The notes under the pieces are model-generated. The model was not told the origin of the DNA. It made no database searches and saw nothing but the letters and a program-made list of their open reading frames with translations. Both the position numbers and the translations under genes were made by a program. Below, one piece after another: positions 8,625-55,849 of a stretch of 64,000 nt of DNA; the stretch's first letter is position 1; the number at the start of each line of letters is the position of its first letter. Where the stretch lies: NCBI RefSeq assembly GCF_030994125.1, contig NZ_CP099918.1, positions 1 through 64,000 on the forward strand, given 5' to 3'. Source of the stretch: Pseudoalteromonas xiamenensis (GTDB lineage Bacteria; Pseudomonadota; Gammaproteobacteria; Enterobacterales; Alteromonadaceae).

Positions 8625-10034
8625 TCAATGAGGTTTGCCTACTGGAAGCACAATGTGTACTCGAGTATGCAAACCGAGCTGAGACTCTACATACATATCG
8701 CCAAAATGGCTTTTAATAATCGCTATCGCGATGCTGAGCCCAAGACCTGTACCCGAGCCAATCGGTTTAGTGGTAAAGAACGGGTCAAATATGCGATTTA
8801 AAATATCAGGTTCGACTCCCCTGCCGTTGTCTTCAATTAGAATTTCTAAGCTGTCTTTATCTAAAGGTTTAATTGAGATGAGCACTTTACCTTCCGCTTT
8901 GTCTACAACCGCTTCATACGCATTCTTAATTACATTAGTTATTGCTGTACCTATTTGGCAACCAATACATCGGATCAAAAAATCTTCTGGAATTTGAGTT
9001 TCAACAACACAACAATGCGGTTTTATTTCCTGTGACTTTTCCAAAGCAAGCTGAATCATTTTGGATAAATTAACGTCTTCGACAGCTTGTACCTCTTGTG
9101 CCGTAAATACACCTAAATCTTTCACTATCGCCTGAATGCGATTGAGGCCAAGTTTGACATCCCCCATTAAGTCATTCGCGTCGTCGAAGACCCAATCAAG
9201 TTGGTAATTCTTTTTCAAAACCTCGAGCTGCTGAAGATACTGTTCTTCATTTGAAATCGAAGCATTTACTGTGTCTTTCCACATTGATTGCCACTTGCCA
9301 AGATAAGACTCTAAAAATTCAAGGTTAGAAAATAGAAAACCAAGTGGATTATTAATTTCATGTGCAACACCTGCAGCCAATTGACCGAGTGAGGCAAGTT
9401 TTTCAGCCTGAACAAGCGCAAATTGCTGGCGTTCGATTTCAGCCATTGCATCAACAAGTTCATCATTGGACGCTTTTAGCTCGGCGGTGCGTTGTTCTAC
9501 TTTCAACTCCAAACTTTGATTAAGTAGCGCAAGTTCATCAGATAAATGCTTGAGTTTTGAGACATGTTCAAATGCCCTCAATGCAGCCGTAACCGTCGAG
9601 AACAACCGTTCTTTCGTCAGTTCTGTCTTGCATTTGTAATCATTGATATCGTACTGCTGCATAACAACCTGTTCAGGGACATCCCCTGGCTGTCCGGTCC
9701 GCAGCACAATTTGCACAGTATCATTCATCAAGGTATTACGAATTTGCTCTGCACATCGAAGTCCCGCATCGTTTGTTTCCATGATGACGTCGAGAAGAAC
9801 GAGCGCTACGCTTGGTTTGTCTCGAAGGATAGATAAAGCTTCGTCGCCGCTGTAGGCATGGAGTATTGCAAGTTTTTTTCCATGATACATGAAATTATTG
9901 AGGACTAATTTAGATAGAATATGCACCTGCTCATCATCATCGACGATAAGTACTGGCCATGCTCGTTCGTCATGACTCTCATGTTCGTCAGATTCTTTCT
10001 GAAAGAAACTTAAAGGCGCATCTTTGTCTATCAT
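8625..10034 (-). CDS. Receiver-histidine kinase hybrid (REC then kinase)
   Basis: This is a 469-residue soluble protein. The N-terminal receiver domain (about 25-150) has LIVDDDEQVH, the phospho-acceptor Asp in LVLLDVIME, and a Lys-containing DYKCKTELT. A coiled-coil linker follows (165-210), then the kinase H-box GVAHEINNPLGF (His near 227) and an HATPase domain with N-box IKNAYEAV and G-boxes EDNGRG and GSGTGLGLS. There is no membrane segment and no output DNA-binding domain. So it probably receives a phosphoryl signal and passes it to another, unlinked partner. It faces the acyltransferase end to end and is otherwise alone. Confidence 0.9.
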   Translation of the reverse strand: MIDKDAPLSFFQKESDEHESHDERAWPVLIVDDDEQVHILSKLVLNNFMYHGKKLAILHAYSGDEALSILRDKPSVALVLLDVIMETNDAGLRCAEQIRNTLMNDTVQIVLRTGQPGDVPEQVVMQQYDINDYKCKTELTKERLFSTVTAALRAFEHVSKLKHLSDELALLNQSLELKVEQRTAELKASNDELVDAMAEIERQQFALVQAEKLASLGQLAAGVAHEINNPLGFLFSNLEFLESYLGKWQSMWKDTVNASISNEEQYLQQLEVLKKNYQLDWVFDDANDLMGDVKLGLNRIQAIVKDLGVFTAQEVQAVEDVNLSKMIQLALEKSQEIKPHCCVVETQIPEDFLIRCIGCQIGTAITNVIKNAYEAVVDKAEGKVLISIKPLDKDSLEILIEDNGRGVEPDILNRIFDPFFTTKPIGSGTGLGLSIAIAIIKSHFGDMYVESQLGLHTRVHIVLPVGKPH

Positions 10035-44688: not shown

Positions 44689-46545
44689 TCAACGGGTCAT
44701 ATTTAGAACATAGTTGCCCGAACCTGAGTAAGAATAAACAATAACTCGATAGTAACCACTTGATGCAGTGTAATTTATGGACTCACTGGAAGTTGCAGAC
44801 TCTGACACGGCAACTTGCTGCCATGCACTATTTACCCATTTTTCAATTTTTAGGTCGAAATCCGCACCTGTTGGCCCTTCTAAGTTCAACGAAATGCTAC
44901 CGCCAGCATACTGAAACCAATTGCCATTTGGTTCAATTGCCTGACCTTTGTTGTCAAGGTAACCTCGATATTCCTCAATAGGCAAAGCTCCAACTAAATC
45001 AACATTGAACGTCATTGTTGGTTTTGGATCAGATATTTTATCAATCAACATGCCCGAATTTTTCCCACTCCACCATTTTGCGTTCGTCCCCTTACTTGAT
45101 AACGCATTCGGTAACGTATCGGAAAACTCACCAGCCACATCAAATAAATCCGTGCTATCACCACGATTACGTTTGTTTTCAGGATCACGATTGCCATCGG
45201 CATGTTCCATTTGAATGTATGGGTGCCACTCATCAGAATTAGAACCTGTTGGGTCGACATGCCAAATAGCGAGACCTTGATCAAGTTGTTCAGCGTTTTG
45301 ACCACTTTTGTGGATAGCTTCTATATAAAATGCTTCTGTCGCGTTGTTTTCGTTAGTCCATTTGTAAGACGTGTTTGTTCCAGATGTATGGCTTACTTGG
45401 CCTAAAGGCGCATTGCGGTTAATACTCGGGTTAAGCTCCGTCACTATGTCCCAACCTGCTTTATCTCGCAATGGGGCAACAGGAGGTGTTGGATTGAAGC
45501 GATTGGTCGCGCCGATTGCACCAAACCCCATAACACCGAAACTGGCAACAGAACCTTCTGAAGATCCGTCATAGTCGTATAGATCCGGCCAGTTGGTAAT
45601 CAAGTGCCCGGATTCATGAACAAACGTACCGATGGCAAGACTGCTACCCATATCGGTAATTTGATATCGATCGGTGCATACTCCATCAGCACAGAATCTT
45701 GGACTCAACTGCGCCATGTGTGGCCACAAACCTTTAGACCAACTACTGTCTGATGCACCAGCATAAAATACGTTTAAACCTCGAATACGCTTGCTGCTAT
45801 CCACCGTTAACGTTGAAAAATCAAACCCTTGCGTGTTTTCAAGCCAAGCTAATGCTTCCGATATTAGTTCCTGAGAACGCACCGTCGAGCTCAAACTGCT
45901 GTCTGCATAGTAGGCTTTATTTTTCTTTGCAGTGTAGTATGCAGTAACCGTGTTGGTGTAATCGAGTTTTCCACCTGAGACTTCACGAAAATAGCCACGA
46001 ACAGACTGCGCATTGCCGAATTCGGCGTAATTCAGATCATTTAAGAAAGACTCTACTTGGGATTTGCTAATGGTCCCACGTAAATCTGGGAAATCGATAA
46101 TGATCGTCAACCCCTTTACATTACCGTCTATTGCAAGTGGTGAACTACGTTCGCTTGAAGTTCCCAAAAACTCCGTTTTCGCTTTACTCAACTGCTCAAT
46201 GACCGCTTCGCGCGACAGGGATTTTCTCTCACCGAATGTAGCTTCTAAACGCTTATTCTGTAACGTTTTGTTGGCAACCAATACACCACTTGATATGTAC
46301 GCTTCACCGTTCTTTGAAAGTTTCGCGTAAGTCATCCCTTTCAGCTTCTCATCATAGATTACTGGGAATCCAGAGGTCGTTGTTTGCGTTGCAACGTAGG
46401 TGTTGCCGTTAAGCACGATTTCCACTTTTTCACCATTTGGCTGAGTGAAAAAATAGGACTGATCTTTGTAGGGAATTGCTGCCAATGCGCTGCTTGACGC
46501 CACGACTAAAACGGACAAAACTTTGCTTAAATGTTTACCTTTCAT
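44689..46545 (-). CDS. Secreted M6-family metalloprotease
   Basis: This 618-residue zinc protease has a signal peptide (MKGKHLSKVLSVLVVASSSA) and a prodomain to about residue 135. The M6 catalytic domain has the HExxH motif FVHESGHLITNW (His near 309) and a downstream Asp-Tyr-Asp region (LYDYDGSS). Met-containing ASFGVMGFG and GLAIWHVDP, which are M6 family features, also occur. The C-terminal 100 residues (from about 520) form a PPC-like (pre-peptidase C-terminal) beta domain. It is probably secreted by type II secretion and degrades extracellular protein. Confidence 0.92.
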   Translation of the reverse strand: MKGKHLSKVLSVLVVASSSALAAIPYKDQSYFFTQPNGEKVEIVLNGNTYVATQTTTSGFPVIYDEKLKGMTYAKLSKNGEAYISSGVLVANKTLQNKRLEATFGERKSLSREAVIEQLSKAKTEFLGTSSERSSPLAIDGNVKGLTIIIDFPDLRGTISKSQVESFLNDLNYAEFGNAQSVRGYFREVSGGKLDYTNTVTAYYTAKKNKAYYADSSLSSTVRSQELISEALAWLENTQGFDFSTLTVDSSKRIRGLNVFYAGASDSSWSKGLWPHMAQLSPRFCADGVCTDRYQITDMGSSLAIGTFVHESGHLITNWPDLYDYDGSSEGSVASFGVMGFGAIGATNRFNPTPPVAPLRDKAGWDIVTELNPSINRNAPLGQVSHTSGTNTSYKWTNENNATEAFYIEAIHKSGQNAEQLDQGLAIWHVDPTGSNSDEWHPYIQMEHADGNRDPENKRNRGDSTDLFDVAGEFSDTLPNALSSKGTNAKWWSGKNSGMLIDKISDPKPTMTFNVDLVGALPIEEYRGYLDNKGQAIEPNGNWFQYAGGSISLNLEGPTGADFDLKIEKWVNSAWQQVAVSESATSSESINYTASSGYYRVIVYSYSGSGNYVLNMTR

Positions 46546-46881
46546 GTTGTATCTCCATTTATTGGGTACAACATAGATACCAACAGATTAACATTTAATC
46601 AACCTTGCATTTTCATCTGGCCAACTCCTAAATGGACAACCTATATCTACAGGTTAGCCATATACGAATTGATATATTCAGGTATAGTTTCCTTAGCATC
46701 TAAATAATGCAAATGAGAGGAATATATAGGGAGAATGAATCCATTGCGCACTTTGTGAACAAATGTAATAAAAATAGAAAAGGCTAAGTAAGACAGTAGG
46801 CAATGATATTGCGAGCTAAATTTCTGTCTGCACTTAAATCAAACTTGTTGGCCACATTTAGTTAAAAGGTCGCAGTCGCGT
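46546..46881. other. Gap between M6 peptidase and envelope operon
   Basis: These 336 bases contain the peptidase promoter and the 3' end of the operon at 46882. No gene or clear terminator is visible. Confidence 0.5.
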
Positions 46882-47715
46882 TTACAACTTTACGTCTAAA
46901 TTCTTTTTAAGTACCGTACCAAACTGTTCACTCACATCATCAAACGCAAGTTCACTTAAGATATCCATTGATTCATTTCGAAATGAAATTCCTTTTCCTT
47001 TAAGAATATTTTGCTTAAAAATTTCATCTTTTTTTACATTGATCAATCGGATAGACACAATCACATCTGCCCTACGGCGACGAAACGATGGTTTGCTTGC
47101 CTCTGTGATATCAATAACCACAGTAGCTTTCGTTAACTTGTCAGTTGTCATTAATCCCAAATCACTCAATTGGGTTAATGTTAGATGAGCAAGATAATCG
47201 AGTTGAGGCTCGCTGTTTTTTACAAAGAAAGTTTGCGCCTTCAATCGTTGATTTTGTGATTCACGTTCTGCTTGCAGTGCATTTTTAATATCCGCCTCAG
47301 AAACAACAATAGCCGAATAAACTAAGCATCGTTCGCTGTCAATCCAATTATCGTAGATTGTTGCCCCTTTAATAATTGCTTTACTCTCAAAACGTGCCTT
47401 ATTTTTTGTTCGACTGAGTGCTACATTATTTTCTTTTAGTTGATCAAGTTCTGTTTTTGATTGCACCGTTGTCTCAAGTAACACGGCTAGTGATTCTGTT
47501 GCTGACTGCTTCGCTTTTTTGAGATCTATCTGCTTCAAACCTGTACAGCGCGCGATGCCAAATGTTTTAAATTGGCCGTTTCCTGACTGCTCTGTGTCAA
47601 TCCAGTCTGGTTTTGCTTGTTGCTCAAAATAATTTATACAACCGCATGCAGCTTTCACATTTGATGGATAAAGTAGGGATCCTATGATCCCTACTAAGAT
47701 GAAGCTAAACTTCAT
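46882..47715 (-). CDS. Second LPP20-like exported protein (envelope operon gene 5)
   Basis: This 277-residue protein has a signal peptide (MKFSFILVGIIGSLLYPSNV) followed by Ala-Cys-Gly-Cys. This is not a standard lipobox, so it is probably soluble or cleaved before the cysteines. A central segment with ARCTGLKQIDLKKAKQSATE and AIVVSEADIKNALQ resembles LPP20-type domains. Further on is a region of beta strands with ADVIVSIRLINVKKDE. The start codon overlaps the preceding gene's stop (TAATG), showing coupling. Function is unknown; the context suggests an envelope complex. Confidence 0.7.
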   Translation of the reverse strand: MKFSFILVGIIGSLLYPSNVKAACGCINYFEQQAKPDWIDTEQSGNGQFKTFGIARCTGLKQIDLKKAKQSATESLAVLLETTVQSKTELDQLKENNVALSRTKNKARFESKAIIKGATIYDNWIDSERCLVYSAIVVSEADIKNALQAERESQNQRLKAQTFFVKNSEPQLDYLAHLTLTQLSDLGLMTTDKLTKATVVIDITEASKPSFRRRRADVIVSIRLINVKKDEIFKQNILKGKGISFRNESMDILSELAFDDVSEQFGTVLKKNLDVKL

Positions 47716-48800
47716 TACAGACGTCCTGATTCTTTAAGCTCTGCTAACGCCACATCAAATTGATTGCGCTCATCAACTCGACGAATTGCGGTACGTGTTT
47801 CTTCTAAGTCCTTTGGATCGATGTCAAGCATCATCGCTTTTTTATAGAACGCTTTTGCTACGTCAAGTTCCCCATTTCGCTCTGCGCATAAGCCGTTGTT
47901 ATATAAAAGCGCCAATGAATCACTGTACATAGATTGTGCGTCAGCAAACATCTGGCATGCTTCGTCATACCACTTAGCCTCAGCAAATTCGATACCTTTA
48001 TCTAATTTTGCTTTCGCTTCTTTGGGCATTTTTGAATTGTCGCTTTCCATTAAATCAGGTGACACCACCACCCGGTGAGGAGCAATATCTTTGCGCAATT
48101 CAGCAAACGCAACTTGAACTGCCGACTGCCTTAACTCTTCTTTCGTTTTATGTGGCTCATTATCATCGTTACAGCGGCTGGACTCAGCATTCCCACTGTA
48201 ACTTTTATTAAACACAATTCGCCCGGATTCTACAGAAACCACTTTCGGCGTTAGGCGCGCATGTACTTGTTTAGTCGAGCAGCTCACACTGTATTCGTAT
48301 TGATTCTTGCATTTTTTATCCGAACATTTAGAGCGAGTTTCAGAGTAATGTTGCGTTTCATCTGACAGTGCATAACTTGCCGTTACAATCGCGTCAGCAC
48401 CTAACAATTTGCCTAATTTCGCACTTGTTTTCGCATCTGCTAGATCACTTGTTGAAAAACGTTGCTCTTTAATAACTCGGTCTATTGTAGAGCGGTCAAT
48501 CATGACAAAGTAGTTTTGACCTTCAACTACCGTATTTGTGTATAAAGACTCAACACTATCAGACATTTCTCTTTCTACACTTCTCCCTTGATTTCCAGAT
48601 ACATCGGTCACTGCAAGCTTACGAACATCGTTCATTTGCTGCTGTTTCGCTGGTGACATGTACTCTATTGGCAAAGGAGGGCTTGTAAACGCGCTTGAAA
48701 CCACCTCCCCTAAATCTTGAAGTGTAGACATCACACTTTGAGTCACATTACAGCCAGTTAATGTGACCGCTACAGCTGAGAGTAGAATTACTTTTTTCAT
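47715..48800 (-). CDS. CsgG-like lipoprotein with C-terminal TPR (envelope operon gene 4)
   Basis: This 361-residue protein has a lipobox LTGCNV (Cys 17). The N-terminal half (about 55-240) looks like CsgG/HfaB/LpoB-type proteins: RKLAVTDVSG, FVMIDRSTIDRVIKEQRF, LGKLLGADAIVTASY. The C-terminal part (about 265-350) has TPR-like helices (KWYDEACQMFADAQSM, LALLYNNGLCAERNGELDVA). CsgG forms outer-membrane export pores, and LpoB activates penicillin-binding proteins. Here the nearby lytic transglycosylase makes a cell-wall role likely. AAGGAAATTAA precedes the ATG. Confidence 0.8.
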   Translation of the reverse strand: MKKVILLSAVAVTLTGCNVTQSVMSTLQDLGEVVSSAFTSPPLPIEYMSPAKQQQMNDVRKLAVTDVSGNQGRSVEREMSDSVESLYTNTVVEGQNYFVMIDRSTIDRVIKEQRFSTSDLADAKTSAKLGKLLGADAIVTASYALSDETQHYSETRSKCSDKKCKNQYEYSVSCSTKQVHARLTPKVVSVESGRIVFNKSYSGNAESSRCNDDNEPHKTKEELRQSAVQVAFAELRKDIAPHRVVVSPDLMESDNSKMPKEAKAKLDKGIEFAEAKWYDEACQMFADAQSMYSDSLALLYNNGLCAERNGELDVAKAFYKKAMMLDIDPKDLEETRTAIRRVDERNQFDVALAELKESGRL

Positions 48801-48811
48801 TTAATTTCCTT

Positions 48812-50086
48812 TTATAGTCTGTTATTCGATGCAAAGTAGTCTTTACTGGCGAGTACTTTTTGCAGGTAACGTTGTGTTTCCGTTGGCGTGCGTTTTTGCA
48901 AAGTGTCGAAAACCTCTTGATGCGATAAACGATTGATCTGTTCAATTGCTTTGACTCGATTATTTACGCCACCATTAAATGCCTTTGAAACGTTGCCGAT
49001 GCCGGTATTGTAAGCTGCAATGGTGCAATATAAGCGACTGGTTGGATTTTCAATGCCATTTAAAAAGCGTTGAGTAAGCAGATTTAGATAGGCTGCCCCA
49101 TAGAAAAGATTCTGTTCACTTTCATAAAGAGTTTTCGCATCCGGTAAACCCTTTTTCTTGAGCGTAAATTTATTTACATCCGCTCCAGCAGTCGCAGGCA
49201 CTATCTGCATTAAACCAAATGCCGGAATACTCGATTTAGCAAGAGGGTTAAAATGGCTTTCTGTTTCTGTCACTGCTAACACTAAATTTACGTCAATTCC
49301 ATGCTCCGACGCATTCTCTTGAATATCAGTCAAAAATGGAGCACTTCGTTCTATACGCGAACGATTACGGTTGATTTGATAAGTTTTCGTGTTCGCAATC
49401 AGTAACTTTTCACGCTGTATCGAAAGTTGTTTTTTATCTTCGATAATGGATGTCTTCACCTGTTTTTGTTCATCAGAAAGTGGCTTTTGTGATTCTAGAT
49501 TGGCAATTTCATCAAGTTGATTGTCGATCCGTTTGTTGGTCCGCTCAATGACGTTCACTTGATACTGTGAAGGCATAATTTCTTGTGCCGTCGATGCTAT
49601 TGTGTGTAACTGCTCAAGGTTTTCAATGCCTATTTTGCTTAACGTTGAATCCTCCACTAACTTATCAGCTTCTATTTTCGGGGCTTCTAGGGAAAACTCT
49701 AGTTCGGCGAGTTGATTCGGAGAGCGATTAAGCGATTGAGTTAATAGCGCTTTGATTTCCTGTTCGTTTAGTGCTTTTATTTCGTCATTGATAATACTAA
49801 TTTCAATGATATCTTTCTCGAAATCAACAACCAGTTTAGCATTGCCATCTGCCGAATAGCTCACAAACGTATCTTTGCTCGAAACCTCTGGAACACCCCA
49901 TTTATCAATAAGTTGTGCTTTAAATGCTTCATATTTGGCAAGGTAGTCGGTTTTAAATTGCGCGTATTGCGCTTTTTGCTTTAACTTGAATTCATCAAAT
50001 GACGTCGTTGTACCCGTCGCAGCGTTAATCGGAACACTCATTAATAAAACGGCAAAGAGTGATGGGAAAGTAATCCTTGTAACCAT
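48812..50086 (-). CDS. MltC-like lytic transglycosylase (envelope operon gene 3)
   Basis: This 424-residue protein has a signal peptide (ends near INAATG). Its N-terminal part (about 25-180) with KYEAFKAQLIDKWGVPEVS matches the DUF3393 domain before MltC-type enzymes. The C-terminal SLT domain (about 265-420) has the catalytic Glu in VTETESHFNPLA, then AFGLMQIVPATAG and CTIAAYNTGIGNVSKAF. It cleaves murein glycan strands. MltC itself is a lipoprotein; here no lipobox Cys is seen. A coiled-coil stretch (195-240) lies between the domains. Confidence 0.88.
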   Translation of the reverse strand: MVTRITFPSLFAVLLMSVPINAATGTTTSFDEFKLKQKAQYAQFKTDYLAKYEAFKAQLIDKWGVPEVSSKDTFVSYSADGNAKLVVDFEKDIIEISIINDEIKALNEQEIKALLTQSLNRSPNQLAELEFSLEAPKIEADKLVEDSTLSKIGIENLEQLHTIASTAQEIMPSQYQVNVIERTNKRIDNQLDEIANLESQKPLSDEQKQVKTSIIEDKKQLSIQREKLLIANTKTYQINRNRSRIERSAPFLTDIQENASEHGIDVNLVLAVTETESHFNPLAKSSIPAFGLMQIVPATAGADVNKFTLKKKGLPDAKTLYESEQNLFYGAAYLNLLTQRFLNGIENPTSRLYCTIAAYNTGIGNVSKAFNGGVNNRVKAIEQINRLSHQEVFDTLQKRTPTETQRYLQKVLASKDYFASNNRL

Positions 50087-50095
50087 GCCTAATTC

Positions 50096-50857
50096 CTAAT
50101 AATAAAACTGATATTCGTACTGAGTAAGGATTGAATCCACTACAAGTGGCAATGCTTTTTCGGTAATTGCGACGAAGTTAACGGTTTCATTTGAAACTAA
50201 TTTACTCAGAGTGGGCGTTAGTGAATCTTCCGGTTCCGATGAGTTCGCTTGTGTATAAGCGTCGCTGAGTAACGTTTTATCTAGTTTCGTCCCTTGATAA
50301 TCAACAAGACCGTAGGCCATTTGATTGAACAAATAATGTTTACCCAAATCTTCAAAAAGCACGAAATACTTGACGTTAAAATGGTCTATTGAAAAGTCGT
50401 TTAGATTTTCCAATTTATCAACAAGGCGCATTGGCGATGGAACAGATTGTTTATCCAGTAGGCTATAGGGATGAAAATCAGCTTTAAGACCCGTAATGGA
50501 GTATCCCACCACCCTTTTATCTTCGATAAGTAGCGCTAAAATATATTTTTTATCGAGATAATAGTTAATAGTTACTGCATCATCGTATTTTGAAGGTTTG
50601 ATGAGTTGTGGGGCACCGAAAATAGAATAAATATAGTCAATATTACTACCCACATTAACTTTCGCGAGTGACTCATATTCGTACACATTGGTGAAATTAG
50701 ACACAACCGCAACGTAAGCTTCTTGTATCATCGATTTAGTATCAGACCAATTTCCAATCGCCATTAGCGACAAAGACAAAACGATAATTTTGTCTTTGAA
50801 TCTAGCGAACATACTCTTACTTTCACCGTGCTCAGACGTGCCCACAACCGAATTCAT
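50096..50857 (-). CDS. Unrecognised membrane-anchored protein (envelope operon gene 2)
   Basis: This 253-residue protein starts MNSVVGTSEHGE, with one hydrophobic segment (about residues 25-42) and then a mainly beta/alpha soluble region. The region has few charged clusters but recurring aromatics, with IDYIYSIFGAPQLI and YEYQFYY at the end. The start is supported by GAGG 5 bases upstream, and only 7 bases separate it from the lipoprotein gene before it. It may resemble the so-called ETEC_3214 domain proteins; I am not certain. A single-pass inner-membrane partner of the complex is the simplest reading. Confidence 0.6.
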   Translation of the reverse strand: MNSVVGTSEHGESKSMFARFKDKIIVLSLSLMAIGNWSDTKSMIQEAYVAVVSNFTNVYEYESLAKVNVGSNIDYIYSIFGAPQLIKPSKYDDAVTINYYLDKKYILALLIEDKRVVGYSITGLKADFHPYSLLDKQSVPSPMRLVDKLENLNDFSIDHFNVKYFVLFEDLGKHYLFNQMAYGLVDYQGTKLDKTLLSDAYTQANSSEPEDSLTPTLSKLVSNETVNFVAITEKALPLVVDSILTQYEYQFYY

Positions 50858-50864
50858 AAAAACC

Positions 50865-51410
50865 TCAAAGTTTATTTTCAGATTTTATGAAATTTAAATA
50901 CAGCAATGCTTCGTTTTCTGGGTCTAGTTTTGTCGGGCCTTCTGCAATAAGCATCTCGAACAGACGCTTCGCTTTCTCTTCTGGAAGGGTGACTAGAACG
51001 CACACGTTTTTGTTGTCGCCCATTTGCGCATAATCTACTTTCTCGACCACAGTGCCTTGCAGGCTCTGATCAGTAAAATTCGCTATCGTTTGGCTAAACG
51101 TTTCCTTCACGAGATTTTCATTTCCTAATTGCGCTTTCTTTGAAAACGCTTCTTGCAGACTTGAAAGGCGGGTATCGACTTGTTTGGCAATTTCGTCTCG
51201 TGCCAGCATTGCAGCTTGGCTCTTATCTAAACTAAAGCTGTTTGAGGCCAGTACACATGAAGAAGCTGCAAATCCTTTTTCTATGGTTGGGTTGGTCACC
51301 CAACTTGGTATGGTCATCCCCATTTCCGAAGCGTTTGTTTTCTCCGTTGAACTACAACCTGAGAGCAATAATGCTGAAGTGAACATAGATAGTGTCATTA
51401 AACGTTTCAT
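50865..51410 (-). CDS. LPP20-family lipoprotein (envelope operon gene 1)
   Basis: This 181-residue lipoprotein has a lipobox LLSGCSS (Cys 19). The LPP20 domain has IPSWVTNPTIEKGFAASSC and AMLARDEIAKQVDTRLSSLQ. It opens the five-gene operon with AAGGAT before its ATG. LPP20 proteins are outer-membrane lipoproteins of unclear role; in Vibrio the related FlgP works with FlgO and FlgT at the flagellar base. The flagellar genes are not here, so a different complex is likely. Confidence 0.85.
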   Translation of the reverse strand: MKRLMTLSMFTSALLLSGCSSTEKTNASEMGMTIPSWVTNPTIEKGFAASSCVLASNSFSLDKSQAAMLARDEIAKQVDTRLSSLQEAFSKKAQLGNENLVKETFSQTIANFTDQSLQGTVVEKVDYAQMGDNKNVCVLVTLPEEKAKRLFEMLIAEGPTKLDPENEALLYLNFIKSENKL

Positions 51411-52126
51411 TTTAATCCTTTAAACACCGAGAGTTTATTTTTGCTATTACAAAATTAAGAGTTCGTGTATTGAGTCAACGTTAAAACCAGTATGTAAACT
51501 CAAAAAATCATAAGTGATAAAGAAATAAACAGCTTATTACACCGCAATATTCACAATGATGTTCATGACAACGATTATGTGTTAAAGCGCCTGAAAAATG
51601 AGCGTTAGAAAAGAAAGTAGGCTAGACACAGCCTTAGCCTTGACGAAACAAACGCAAAACACACGACGCCAGTTTAGAATGCCAAAGTGATTCACATCTG
51701 TTTGCGGAAAAGATTCCGATTTCCTTTCTTTTAATTATTTTGGTTACAGCAAAAGTTAACCAAAATTTATATCCTTATCAGCTACAGTGCGCAGTTTAGA
51801 ACAATATTTTTCCTCAAATCAAGCGCTAATGATTACAATTTAATACAAATTTGATCTAGATCTCGGGAGTTTGTAAATATTAAGTTACTTTTAGTTTTAC
51901 TTAAATTCATGTAATTGCAGTCTTTTTTGCTCACTTGAATCTGAATCCACAAACCAACCACGCTTCTGTTTCCCTCCATTTAAGCGATACAGTAAGTTCG
52001 ATTTGGAAATGCCACTTTTGCCTCAAAATGTTGTAGGTTCGCCTCATTTTGAGCAAAATTCGTTTTCATTACATATTGTGCAATTAGAATACTTGCTCGA
52101 CCATTTTTAGGGACAATTAATAAAAC
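51411..52126. other. 716-base gap between two divergent genes
   Basis: No convincing gene. The sequence is AT-rich and carries the promoter of the envelope operon on one side and that of the pyrophosphatase gene on the other. The gap is unusually long for this dense window and could host an unseen regulatory RNA, but I find no terminator hairpin to support one. Confidence 0.5.
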
Positions 52127-53335
52127 ATGTCTAAACGTAACGCACATATACTTCGCCGATTGTTGCTCCTGATGACAATAATCTGGCTTCCTAGTGTGTC
52201 AGCCAAGCAAGCACCGGTCGTACTCATCTCGTTAGATGGCTTTCGATGGGATTACATTGAAAAGCACGGTGCTGAAAACTTAAAACGCATTGCGATGCAA
52301 GGTACTCGAGCGCAATTCATGCGACCTGTTTATCCAACCAAAACGTTCCCAAATCATTTGTCTATCGTCACCGGACTGCTACCTTCTAATCACGGTGTTG
52401 TAGATAATCATTTCTGCGATAAAACACGAGAGCAATGTTATGAAATGGGGGATGGACTTGACGACAGTACGTGGCTATCCGGCATTCCACTCTGGAATCT
52501 CGCCGAAATGCAGGGCGTGAAAGCGGCGACGTATTTTTGGCCGGAGTCAGACGCTCGATTTAATGGACGTACAGCATCTTATTATTATCACTATTCTAAA
52601 CACAGTGATTATCAAAATCGCATTAACCAAATGGTACAGTGGCTCCAATTACCAGAATCCCAAAGACCAGAATTTATCGCAGGTTATTTTTCATTAGTAG
52701 ACTCTACGGGACATAAATTTGGACCGAATGCGCAGGAAACGAAAGAGGCTGTGCAGCGCGTAGATGAGTTAATTGGTCAGTTCGATAGACGCCTAGCTGA
52801 ACTTAAGTTAGACGTGAACCTCATTTTAGTGTCTGACCACGGAATGTCTCAAGTAGACCCCGAAAAAGCAATTTTAGTTGAGGAACTTGGTGTATCGGAA
52901 ACAGATTTCGCGATACTAAATGGCGCTACTAAAGTCCACTTTTACAAGAAACCGACCTCAAATGTCTCAATTGATCACATTAGAAAACAACTGATGTCAA
53001 AAAGCGCAGGGCGTTTCGACGTTTTGTCAAAAGAGACGTTACTAAAACGAGGTATCAAGGACGATAGCCGCCTAGCAGATATTCTCATTGAAACCACCGC
53101 GCCTCGAACATTCAAGTACAAAAGACCCTCAACCGAACACGGCATGCACGGTTATGCTTTCACCAAAGACATGGGCGCAATCTTTATCGCCAAAGGTCCT
53201 GCATTTAAGCAAGGATTTGAATTAACGGAGGTCAACAATCTTGATGTTTACCCAACGGTTGCCAAAATACTAGGTCTAAAGTTACTTGGACCAATTGATT
53301 CAGATGGCATAAGTATCAAAGCATCACTTAAATAA
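52127..53335 (+). CDS. Nucleotide pyrophosphatase/phosphodiesterase (NPP-like)
   Basis: This 402-residue secreted or periplasmic enzyme of the alkaline phosphatase superfamily has metal-site Asp in VVLISLDGFRWDY, the nucleophile Thr in VYPTKTFPNH, and DSTGHKFGPNA. LVSDHGMSQVD carries further metal ligands, and the final His is in STEHGMHGY. It hydrolyses pyrophosphate or phosphodiester bonds such as those of nucleotides. A signal peptide (near residues 10-26) is present. It ends at the terminator shared with the S9 peptidase. Confidence 0.9.
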   Translation: MSKRNAHILRRLLLLMTIIWLPSVSAKQAPVVLISLDGFRWDYIEKHGAENLKRIAMQGTRAQFMRPVYPTKTFPNHLSIVTGLLPSNHGVVDNHFCDKTREQCYEMGDGLDDSTWLSGIPLWNLAEMQGVKAATYFWPESDARFNGRTASYYYHYSKHSDYQNRINQMVQWLQLPESQRPEFIAGYFSLVDSTGHKFGPNAQETKEAVQRVDELIGQFDRRLAELKLDVNLILVSDHGMSQVDPEKAILVEELGVSETDFAILNGATKVHFYKKPTSNVSIDHIRKQLMSKSAGRFDVLSKETLLKRGIKDDSRLADILIETTAPRTFKYKRPSTEHGMHGYAFTKDMGAIFIAKGPAFKQGFELTEVNNLDVYPTVAKILGLKLLGPIDSDGISIKASLK

Positions 53336-53341
53336 TGTCAT

Positions 53342-53385
53342 ATCAAGAATAAGAAAGGCCCTTTCGGGCCTTTTTTATTCTTGAT
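53342..53385. terminator. Shared terminator of the NPP-like and S9 peptidase genes
   Basis: A 20-bp stem with one wobble (arms ATCAAGAATAAGAAAGGCCC and its near-complement) has loop TTTC and a T run. It overlaps the S9 stop codon. Confidence 0.92.
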
Positions 53386-55849
53386 TTTGTATCACCGGGA
53401 TTTCCATAACGGCTTTCGTTGGTTGATCGTTGTTTACGCCCTCCGGCATTAAATATTTATCAAGCCAACGTTCTTGCTCCCACAACACGTGCATAATACT
53501 TTCGCGAGCTTTGTATCCGTGCCCTTCTTCGGGAAGCATAACTAACCGAGCGGTTTTACCTAACCCATTGAGCGCCGCATACATACGCTCAGATTGCATT
53601 GGGAACGTACCTGAGTTTGGATCTTCTTTGCCATGAATGAGCAACAGAGGTTCATCGATTTTATCCGCATTGAAGAATGGGGACATTTGCGCGTAAATCG
53701 TTTGGGCTTGCCAAAAGTCGCGCTCTTCACCTTGGAATCCAAAAGGTGTTAAGGAGCGATTGTACGCACCACTACGTGCTATGCCTGTTTTAAATAAATC
53801 ACTGTGCGCCAGTAAATTAGCCACCATAAACGCACCATAAGAATGCCCCGCTATCGCAATACGATTCTTGTCAGCAATACCACGCTCAACCAAGGTATCT
53901 ACCGCCGCTTTTGCGCTCGAAACCAATTGCGGAATAAAACGGTCATTTGGCTGGCTATCACCTTCTCCAATGATGGGCATTTTCGGATCATCAAACACTG
54001 CGATACCTTTCGATAGATAAGGCATTGGCCCCCAGAATCCAATGTAATTAAACTCATACGGCGATTCTCGCATCTGCGATGCAACAGCCTTATCTTTAAA
54101 CTCAAGCGGATACGCCCACATCAAAACTGGTAGTGGTCCTTTTTCTTTTGTATACCCTGCAGGAAGATACAACGTGCCGCTTAACTGTGTTCCATCTTCC
54201 CGCGTATATTTGATCACTTCTTTTGTCACACCAATAAAATCGGGATATGGGTGGTCGTATCGTGTTAACTGCGTAATTGAACTATCGGTTAAGTTTCTCA
54301 AGAAGTAATTCGGTTGCTCAGTTGCTGATTCACGCAATGTGATAAATTGCATTCCTTCATCATCCAACACCGAAACCACGCGCTCATAATACGGTGCTTC
54401 TGATTGCCATACTTTATTAACGTCGTTTGTTTTAATGTCATAACGAGCCAGATAAGGTTGTTTACCTTGCGCCGAAGCGCCATCAGCGACCAGATACATG
54501 TAGCGGCCACCAACCAATTTAACCACTTTTGAACCTAAATCGTTGTAGGTCATAACAAAAGAGCCAGGATCTTTATAACTGTCGTTATAGCTGCGTTCTG
54601 AAAACAGCACGCGATTTTCATCTGCATTACGCGGGGAAACGACGTGCGTTCTCACATGTCTATCTTGGAAACGCCATTCACTCAATAGCGCAACATTATC
54701 GTCAGCCCAATCTATATGGCTGAATCGCCATTCCATTTTCGCAAATAACTCAGGCTCACGACGAAATGGCGCACTGATTGAGTACAAATAATCATGGAAA
54801 GGCACTTGTGCCTTCATGGAACCGCCGTCCTGAGCCTCAGCCCAAATAACCGTCGCACCTTTGTCAGCTCGCCATTGAAATTCGCGACGTCCAGCTTGAA
54901 CACTATCAAAACCTTGCGGGATAGTTTCTGCTAATGGAACTCTGGCCAATTCATAGAGCGGGTGTCCGCGCATGCCCCAGATCTGCCAAACAGTCGGAAA
55001 ACGGTTAAAGGGAACTTGGTAGGAAAATGGCTCATCAATCATCGCGATTAACAAATTTGTGGCGTCTGGGGATACCGCATAATCGGAAATAATCAGCGCA
55101 GGACCAATACCTTGTACTCGGCCATCTAAAGTCAGTTTGACTAACTGTGTTTGCCCGTAAAATTTGAATAACGCTTCATCATGAGGGGTTTGTAACAAGT
55201 TTTGATAAGTGCGGACAGGCGCTTTTTCGCCCTTAGACTCTTGGATAACCGGCTTCAACTTTGCTTTTTCTGCTTCAGGAGGCGTTTTACTGTGATTCGA
55301 CGCAACAGCAGCGACGATTCCGCTGCTATCTTGAAGCCACTCATAGGGTTCAGTAATAAATGCATTGAGCGCAAGTTCGCTCAATTGCTGTAACTTACGC
55401 GTTTTTACATCGTACAGCCAAAGTGTAGTGACTTTGTCCCCAGCAACAACAAAGGCCAGATACTGAGAGTTGCTCGACCAACTCGGAAAGGCAATTTTAC
55501 CTTCAGGTAATTGATTGAGCGGAATAATACTGCCTGTCTGAACGTGCTTAAACTCTAATGTATCGTAAAGTCGAGTTGTGGTTTTAATGCGAGTGTCAGG
55601 ATTGAAACGTACGCCCGCGAGTGCAACCTCGGGTTTGGTAAGATCCGTCAAACTCAATACGCGACTGCGGTCCAATAACGCCATCCAAGCCCCGTCTGGT
55701 GACAATACATTGGTCGGAAGAAGCTTTGCATCTACCACCGAAGCGATAGCAGAAGAAGGCATTTGATATTCAGTATCCGTAGCGTGACTTGCCATTGGTG
55801 TAATGACGCAAAATGACACCAATAAACACATTAACCACTTTTTCAACAT
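53375..55849 (-). CDS. S9-family serine peptidase (prolyl oligopeptidase fold)
   Basis: This 824-residue exported protein has a signal peptide (to about residue 24, ASHAT). An N-terminal beta-propeller follows, then a C-terminal alpha/beta hydrolase with the triad Ser in GHSYGAF (near 667), Asp in HGKEDPNSG (near 743) and His in PEEGHGYK (near 776). It resembles bacterial relatives of chloroplast glutamyl endopeptidase, which cleave peptides after acidic residues; the exact specificity is inferred. GAGA lies upstream of the ATG. The gene is divergent from the LacI regulator. Confidence 0.92.
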   Translation of the reverse strand: MLKKWLMCLLVSFCVITPMASHATDTEYQMPSSAIASVVDAKLLPTNVLSPDGAWMALLDRSRVLSLTDLTKPEVALAGVRFNPDTRIKTTTRLYDTLEFKHVQTGSIIPLNQLPEGKIAFPSWSSNSQYLAFVVAGDKVTTLWLYDVKTRKLQQLSELALNAFITEPYEWLQDSSGIVAAVASNHSKTPPEAEKAKLKPVIQESKGEKAPVRTYQNLLQTPHDEALFKFYGQTQLVKLTLDGRVQGIGPALIISDYAVSPDATNLLIAMIDEPFSYQVPFNRFPTVWQIWGMRGHPLYELARVPLAETIPQGFDSVQAGRREFQWRADKGATVIWAEAQDGGSMKAQVPFHDYLYSISAPFRREPELFAKMEWRFSHIDWADDNVALLSEWRFQDRHVRTHVVSPRNADENRVLFSERSYNDSYKDPGSFVMTYNDLGSKVVKLVGGRYMYLVADGASAQGKQPYLARYDIKTNDVNKVWQSEAPYYERVVSVLDDEGMQFITLRESATEQPNYFLRNLTDSSITQLTRYDHPYPDFIGVTKEVIKYTREDGTQLSGTLYLPAGYTKEKGPLPVLMWAYPLEFKDKAVASQMRESPYEFNYIGFWGPMPYLSKGIAVFDDPKMPIIGEGDSQPNDRFIPQLVSSAKAAVDTLVERGIADKNRIAIAGHSYGAFMVANLLAHSDLFKTGIARSGAYNRSLTPFGFQGEERDFWQAQTIYAQMSPFFNADKIDEPLLLIHGKEDPNSGTFPMQSERMYAALNGLGKTARLVMLPEEGHGYKARESIMHVLWEQERWLDKYLMPEGVNNDQPTKAVMEIPVIQNQE

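What the first reader, a model, noticed from the sequence alone, without database searches (positions are those of the whole stretch)
46882..51410. Five-gene envelope operon joining CsgG-like, LPP20 and lytic transglycosylase proteins
Five minus-strand genes run with gaps of 7, 9 and 11 bases and one TAATG overlap: LPP20 lipoprotein, unknown membrane-anchored protein, MltC-like transglycosylase, CsgG/LpoB-like lipoprotein with TPR, and a second LPP20-like protein. Known parts each act at the outer membrane or cell wall, but I know of no named system with this set. The nearest idea is the Vibrio FlgO/FlgP/FlgT group at the flagellar base, yet no flagellar gene is near. A trans-envelope pore or cell-wall remodelling complex is possible.
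Basis: partly seen in the sequence, partly recalled or inferred. Interest (0 to 1): 0.8.

Follow-up and report, generated by a model that had tools for sequence, protein, structure and literature searches.

The report
Unnamed five-part cell-envelope gene module
Five neighbouring genes of a marine bacterium appear to encode a cell-wall-cutting enzyme with its membrane-anchored helpers, and similar sets of these genes recur together, in shuffled order, in many relatives, which points to an envelope machine for which we found no name.

Summary
The set recurs. Of the 28 other ETEC_3214 genes found in 394 genomes of the order, 24 lie within 8 kb of the same transglycosylase and two LPP20-type genes; 3 of these also have the CsgG-TPR gene and 13 a more distant CsgG-like gene, in several gene orders. 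A two-gene relative (LPP20a + transglycosylase) lies within 4 kb of an LpoB gene in 40 of 40 genus genomes carrying that LpoB. The CsgG-like protein is modelled with the fold shared by LpoB, PelC, GNA1162 and FlgT. FlgT of this genome lies on another contig. Best reading: outer-membrane lipoproteins and an anchored ETEC_3214 protein place and control a dedicated wall-cutting enzyme. Searches of the held open-access library found no paper on the set. Contacts and function are inferred. ETEC_3214 gains a genomic context.

The parts
50865..51410 (-). LPP20a: short lipoprotein (lipobox LSGC by eye, Ser at +2), first gene of the operon
   Evidence: no Pfam hit by itself; LPP20 by profile-profile comparison
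50096..50857 (-). ETEC_3214-domain protein (NF043066): short N-terminal hydrophobic segment, then a probably periplasmic domain with weak structural likeness to BLIP-like and DUF4309 proteins
   Evidence: mean model confidence only 67
48812..50086 (-). MltC-like lytic transglycosylase with a signal sequence (by eye) and no lipobox; E276-S277 invariant in 12 relatives, GLMQ and AYNTG stretches kept
47715..48800 (-). CsgG/LpoB-like lipoprotein (lipobox LTGC by eye) with C-terminal TPR helices
46882..47715 (-). LPP20b: signal sequence (by eye), LPP20 domain, cysteines 24, 26, 57 and 130 invariant in four relatives
   Evidence: starts inside TAATG
51411..52126 (.). 716-base intergenic stretch upstream of the operon, where its promoter should lie
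   Evidence: promoter-like sites no more frequent than in shuffles (12 against a mean of 14.8 over 46500-52200), so no promoter is claimed

Best explanation
The five genes encode one cell-envelope complex built around a dedicated lytic transglycosylase. Two lipoproteins (LPP20a and the CsgG/LpoB-like TPR protein) sit on the inner face of the outer membrane and, with LPP20b, form a scaffold, perhaps a ring, as relatives of these folds do (CsgG, PelC, FlgT, FlgP). The ETEC_3214 protein is anchored at the inner membrane. The MltC-like enzyme, without the lipid anchor of MltC, is held between them and cuts glycan strands where and when the scaffold allows, opening or remodelling the wall locally. 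Shown by sequence: recurrent co-occurrence, catalytic motif, predicted fold of the CsgG-like part, signal and lipobox sequences. Inferred: location, physical contact, ring form, local control, and what the opening serves.
Against: No experiment and no model of contacts. TPR and TolB-like folds are common; TPR rows reach the same Z. 4 of 28 ETEC_3214 genes lack such neighbours, and the one E. coli copy looked at stands alone. 3 of 24 clusters show no CsgG-like gene, and L042 has LPP20a + CsgG-TPR without the enzyme. The close CsgG-TPR gene is rare: 3 of 147 family genomes with the own. Several LPP20a-like genes in the class stand without enzyme or CsgG-like gene, for example L083, L085, L088, L089. 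The N-terminal membrane segment of the window's ETEC_3214 protein is weak.
Confidence: 0.5

Rival explanations
1. A ring scaffold like the Vibrio flagellar H-ring (FlgO/FlgP/FlgT) that serves another trans-envelope machine or an outer-membrane opening; the transglycosylase only clears the wall for it.
For: FlgP, H. pylori Lpp20 and FlgT share an SHS2-like fold, and FlgP and FlgT form rings, according to PMC12222027 (passages); the CsgG-like part matches FlgT and the LPHT ring. One related locus (L045) has LPP20-like, FlgT_N-like (below cut-off), CsgG+TPR and transglycosylase genes next to an MlaE/ABC/MlaD transporter. 27 of 29 ETEC_3214 genomes carry FlgT_N.
Against: No flagellar, pilus or secretion family among the neighbours that were family-scanned, though most neighbours in the related loci were not scanned; the ring-forming hairpin insert of FlgP was not tested for LPP20a; only one locus has the transporter.
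Confidence: 0.25
2. A peptidoglycan-synthesis control module: the LpoB-like TPR lipoprotein activates a synthase (as LpoB or LpoP do, recalled) and couples it to the transglycosylase.
Against: No synthase family among the five proteins or the scanned neighbours; the sequence match to LpoB is below cut-off (0.04).
Confidence: 0.2
3. A curli-like secretion pore.
For: CsgG Pfam match over cut-off; CsgG chains nearly tie with LpoB in Foldseek (1.1e-4 against 8.0e-5).
Against: The hairpin 137-189 is largely polar (simple count, no CsgG control, so odds raised slightly from a first 0.04); no curli gene noticed by eye beside it.
Confidence: 0.06
4. Unrelated genes that share an operon by accident.
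For: Patchy distribution: 3 of 147 family genomes with a close CsgG-TPR gene.
Against: Recurrence in 9 genera with shuffled order.
Confidence: 0.01

Closest known systems
Vibrio FlgO/FlgP/FlgT (H-ring group)
   Same: Combines CsgG/TolB-like and LPP20-type proteins at the outer membrane (partly recalled; PMC12222027 passages); fold match to FlgT
   Different: FlgT_N and an LPP20 match (below cut-off) lie about 0.4 kb apart on the other contig, C1; no transglycosylase or ETEC_3214 protein is part of that group (recalled)
LpoB/PBP1B and LpoP
   Same: Fold of the CsgG-like domain; TPR domain as in LpoP among many TPRs
   Different: No synthase among the five; both domain types in one protein; below the LpoB cut-offs
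CsgG curli secretion channel
   Same: Pfam CsgG domain over cut-off, lipobox
   Different: Largely polar hairpin, no curli gene noticed beside it
MltC membrane-bound lytic transglycosylase
   Same: Catalytic domain and weak N-domain match
   Different: No lipobox; 150.8 bits against an MltC cut-off of 375
ETEC_3214 (E. coli H10407)
   Same: NF043066 domain over cut-off
   Different: PMC5554520 (abstract and passages) reports activation by CfaD and unknown function; the one E. coli copy read here has no such neighbours annotated

Membership tests
CsgG secretion channel | CsgG domain | tested here: met
   PF03783 40.8 bits, cut-off 20.8
CsgG secretion channel | hydrophobic transmembrane beta-hairpins | tested here: inconclusive
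   hairpin strands 137-159 and 167-189 of the model have 6-8 polar or charged residues of 11-12 on each face, which speaks against it; no CsgG control was run (one search printed only TPR chains)
CsgG secretion channel | curli partner genes | not tested
   none noticed by eye in the ORFs around the operon; no search was made for them
LpoB | LpoB family score | tested here: not met
   PF13036 14.3 bits against 22.3; NCBIfam LpoB 15.9 against 110.55
LpoB | LpoB C-terminal fold | tested here: met
LpoB | activates PBP1B | not testable with these tools
   needs biochemistry
Flagellar FlgO/FlgP/FlgT | encoded with flagellar genes | tested here: not met
   no flagellar family among the 8 proteins at 44689-55849 scanned with Pfam; FlgT_N lies on contig C1
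Flagellar FlgO/FlgP/FlgT | needed for motility or part of the motor | not testable with these tools
   needs mutants
FlgP-type ring former | beta-hairpin insert in the SHS2-like fold (PMC12222027, passages) | not tested
MltC | SLT catalytic domain and motif | tested here: met
   PF01464 6e-23; E276-S277 invariant, GLMQ and AYNTG kept in the alignment of 12; motif meaning recalled
MltC | equivalog score and lipoprotein anchor | tested here: not met
   150.8 bits against 375; only cysteine is at residue 354
NF043066 ETEC_3214 domain | family cut-off | tested here: met
   91.2 bits against 35

The most novel reading that the evidence does not exclude
The module is a reusable envelope gate: an outer-membrane platform of LPP20 and CsgG/LpoB-like proteins with its own wall-cutting enzyme and an inner-membrane ETEC_3214 tether, a non-flagellar cousin of the flagellar H-ring that different trans-envelope machines (in one locus an MCE lipid transporter) borrow to pass the cell wall and outer membrane.
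Probability: 0.22. Interest if true: 0.82.

Novelty: new variant of a known kind. Interest (0 to 1): 0.62.

Why it matters
It gives the ETEC_3214 domain, a relative of which is found in 231 of 5426 E. coli genomes, a genomic setting, and ties the LPP20 and CsgG/LpoB families, known from flagellar rings and wall-synthesis control, to a dedicated wall-cutting enzyme. If the complex is real, it is a tractable system for asking how outer-membrane proteins license local cutting of the cell wall away from flagella.

Tried and rejected
A curli-like pore is disfavoured by the strand pattern, without a CsgG control: meant to bring one, printed only TPR chains. A phage-defence role: no PADLOC match at 0.1 for any of the five. 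A flagellar role: weakened, not excluded. PDB sequence searches with the CsgG-like protein and with its profile matched through the TPR part, and with its ~345-aa cousins gave nothing useful. The structural likeness of the ETEC_3214 domain to BLIP-like and DUF4309 proteins rests on a model of mean confidence 67 and is only a lead. Kinship of the 373-408 aa gene of the eight-gene variant to CsgG-like proteins stayed unproven (37%); the 215-222 aa genes in L127, L129 and L137 gave nothing firm. LPP20b against the LPP20d family gave 16.9% with few rows but 94.7% with more. That a transglutaminase-like enzyme replaces the transglycosylase in L078 and L080-L082 rests on weak matches of the SLT model (2e-5 to 3e-8) and PF04473 at 0.06 for one, and is not used. 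In one search two new models gave no labels, probably because an old pressed file was read; one search repeats the annotation with the full set and recounts it. One search found no locus files and gave nothing. Promoter scan: no excess over shuffles.
Full report
What is there. Five minus-strand genes at 46882-51410 form a tight operon with gaps of 7, 9 and 11 bases and a TAATG junction. The window lies on contig C2 of a two-contig genome of 4.6 Mb. Its genus is Pseudoalteromonas: the contig of same-genus genome G164 that holds L033 has the length (730,648 bases) of the Pseudoalteromonas rhizosphaerae RA15 contig that holds L005.

The parts. LPP20a (50865-51410) has a lipobox LSGC. The second gene (50096-50857) is an ETEC_3214-domain protein, NF043066, 91.2 bits against a cut-off of 35. 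The third (48812-50086) is a lytic transglycosylase: SLT domain 6e-23, MltC N-domain 6e-4 (below cut-off), MltC equivalog 150.8 bits against 375, no lipobox. E276-S277 is invariant and the GLMQ and AYNTG stretches are kept in an alignment of 12 relatives (motif meaning recalled). The fourth (47715-48800) is a lipoprotein with a CsgG domain (1.9e-10) and TPR helices. The fifth (46882-47715), LPP20b, starts inside TAATG. Lipoboxes and signal sequences were read by eye. By single-sequence Pfam search LPP20b is below cut-off and LPP20a has no hit. By profile-profile comparison LPP20a and LPP20b match a family (c3) at 97.4% and 95.6%, and a member of that family passes the LPP20 cut-off at 9e-7.

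Relatives in the genus. A transglycosylase match at 1e-30 or better occurs in 55 of 99 genus genomes, own included, at 60 places. I fetched 26 of these places, one per genome, mostly the longer matches. LPP20a lies beside the enzyme in 25 of 26; the exception, L045, has other LPP20-like genes. Five-gene sets with the CsgG-TPR/LPP20b pair occur in L005, L006, L007 (Shewanella) and L032-L034, in the order CsgG-LPP20b-ETEC_3214-transglycosylase-LPP20a, different from the window. L017, the closest among the loci read for the window's first three genes, has LPP20a-ETEC_3214-transglycosylase-LPP20-CsgG2.

Two-gene core with an LpoB operon. In 14 of the 20 loci the pair LPP20a + transglycosylase stands divergent from a TPR lipoprotein, an LpoB protein (PF13036 1e-39) and an LPP20 protein. 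That LpoB is 79-100% identical in 40 of 99 genomes, and in 40 of 40 it lies 3.2-3.9 kb from the transglycosylase. These genomes are related, so this is not 40 independent events. 52 more have only a distant LpoB (25-30%), and 7 none, among them the window's genome, which also has no PF13036 match.

Wider survey. NF043066 was found in 29 of 394 genomes of the order, 11 of 114 genera. All 28 loci other than the own were read. 24 of 28 have, within 8 kb, the transglycosylase (model E below 1e-80), a short LPP20 gene and a second LPP20-type gene; L112, L126, L128 and L133 have none of these. Of the 24, 3 have the CsgG-TPR type, 13 the CsgG2 type, 5 (L115, L120, L124, L138, L139) the corresponding gene of the eight-gene variant, and 3 (L127, L129, L137) none. 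Caveats: the CsgG2, LPP20d and variant models were built in part from L113, L114, L117, L118, L120 and L124, and the others in part from L007, which is L125; these match by construction. CsgG2 proteins had no Pfam CsgG hit in the four scanned (L113, L117, L118, L017); their kinship to CsgG-TPR is by profile comparison, 95.5% or 67.6% with other rows. The LPP20 label of the second gene was checked with Pfam in L113, L117, L118 and L017 (over cut-off) and not found in L120. With the own genome the module covers 9 of 11 genera and 7 of 9 families. A simple chance model, two such enzymes assumed per 4.5 Mb genome and 8 kb to either side, gives 6e-48 by gene and 3e-18 by genus; the genus figure is the fairer one. 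In the class sample 3 of 369 genomes had the profile match; besides the own, both lie beside the transglycosylase. The LPP20a profile found 20 of 369, several near the LpoB operon or the enzyme, others with neither (for example L083, L085, L088, L089).

Gene orders with this content: the window's; L017's; CsgG-LPP20b-ETEC_3214-enzyme-LPP20a (L123, L125, L132); ETEC_3214-LPP20-CsgG2-short LPP20-enzyme (L113, L114, L117, L121); ETEC_3214-LPP20a-enzyme-LPP20-CsgG2 (L116, L118, L119, L122); LPP20-CsgG2-LPP20a-enzyme-ETEC_3214 (L130, L131, L136; in L134 and L135 with the LPP20 gene on the other strand).

Flagella. FlgT_N was found in 219 of 394 genomes. 27 of 29 ETEC_3214 genomes have it, the two without being G868 and G960, against 192 of 365 others; Fisher 8e-6, not corrected for ancestry. 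In the own genome FlgT_N lies on C1 at 3,082,597 with an LPP20 match, below cut-off, at 3,083,228. So the operon is separate from that set, while its host range overlaps with that of FlgT.

How it probably works. Two lipoproteins at the outer membrane, a likely tether at the inner membrane and an unanchored wall-cutting enzyme are made together. The simplest mechanism is local, scaffold-controlled wall cutting. Proteins of the SHS2-like fold of Lpp20 form rings in FlgP and FlgT (PMC12222027, passages). H. pylori FapH, in an operon with flgP, forms a ring near the outer membrane and helps keep its barrier (PMC11756786, abstract start and passages). HP0018, whose homologue adjoins an LpoB homologue in many enterohepatic Helicobacter, had MltD as a potential partner by co-IP (PMC11394524, passages). 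These are analogies. One locus, L045, links the enzyme, LPP20-like, FlgT_N-like (below cut-off) and CsgG+TPR proteins to an MlaE/ABC/MlaD transporter, which inspires the bolder reading that the module is a gate lent to trans-envelope machines.

In print. In the held library no paper has LPP20 with CsgG, FlgO with CsgG and lipoprotein, COG3014 (that label for the TPR lipoprotein is recalled), or MltC with Pseudoalteromonas, operon and lipoprotein. LPP20 with LpoB gives one paper and LPP20 with lytic transglycosylase three, all on Helicobacter (listing). ETEC_3214 gives one, PMC5554520, seen as abstract and passages: activated by CfaD, function unknown. Most papers of subscription journals are not held, so the set may be described elsewhere.

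Verdict. A real, recurrent five-part envelope module for which no description was found. The mechanism is inferred.

Noticed in passing
L045:854-15402: Transglycosylase, two LPP20-like (just below cut-off), FlgT_N-like (below cut-off) and CsgG+TPR genes beside an MlaE/ABC/MlaD transporter and a 622-aa protein with beta-helix and weak fn3 and GNA1162/LpoB-like matches.
   Followed up: partly
L044:1109-9061 (also L035, L043, L047, L124): Eight- or nine-gene variant: a lipoprotein, an LPP20 protein, 385-, 455-, 432- and 237-aa proteins without firm Pfam family, then transglycosylase and LPP20a; L124 has ETEC_3214 inside.
   Followed up: partly
L078, L080-L082: LPP20a-like genes beside a ~500-aa protein with a similar helical N-terminus and perhaps a transglutaminase-like C-terminus instead of the SLT domain.
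   Followed up: partly
G000 whole genome: No LpoB match (PF13036), although 92 of 99 genus genomes have an LpoB-like match; 6 other genomes also lack it.
   Followed up: no
L140:7986-8723: E. coli ETEC_3214 family gene without transglycosylase or LPP20 gene annotated around it; 231 of 5426 E. coli genomes have a match.
   Followed up: partly
window 44689-46545: M6-type peptidase with a C-terminal PPC-like stretch (below cut-off) downstream of the operon; not part of the module.
   Followed up: no
L116, ORFs starting at 9730 and 10311: Second LPP20 gene of this cluster appears as two ORFs of 184 and 137 aa.
   Followed up: no
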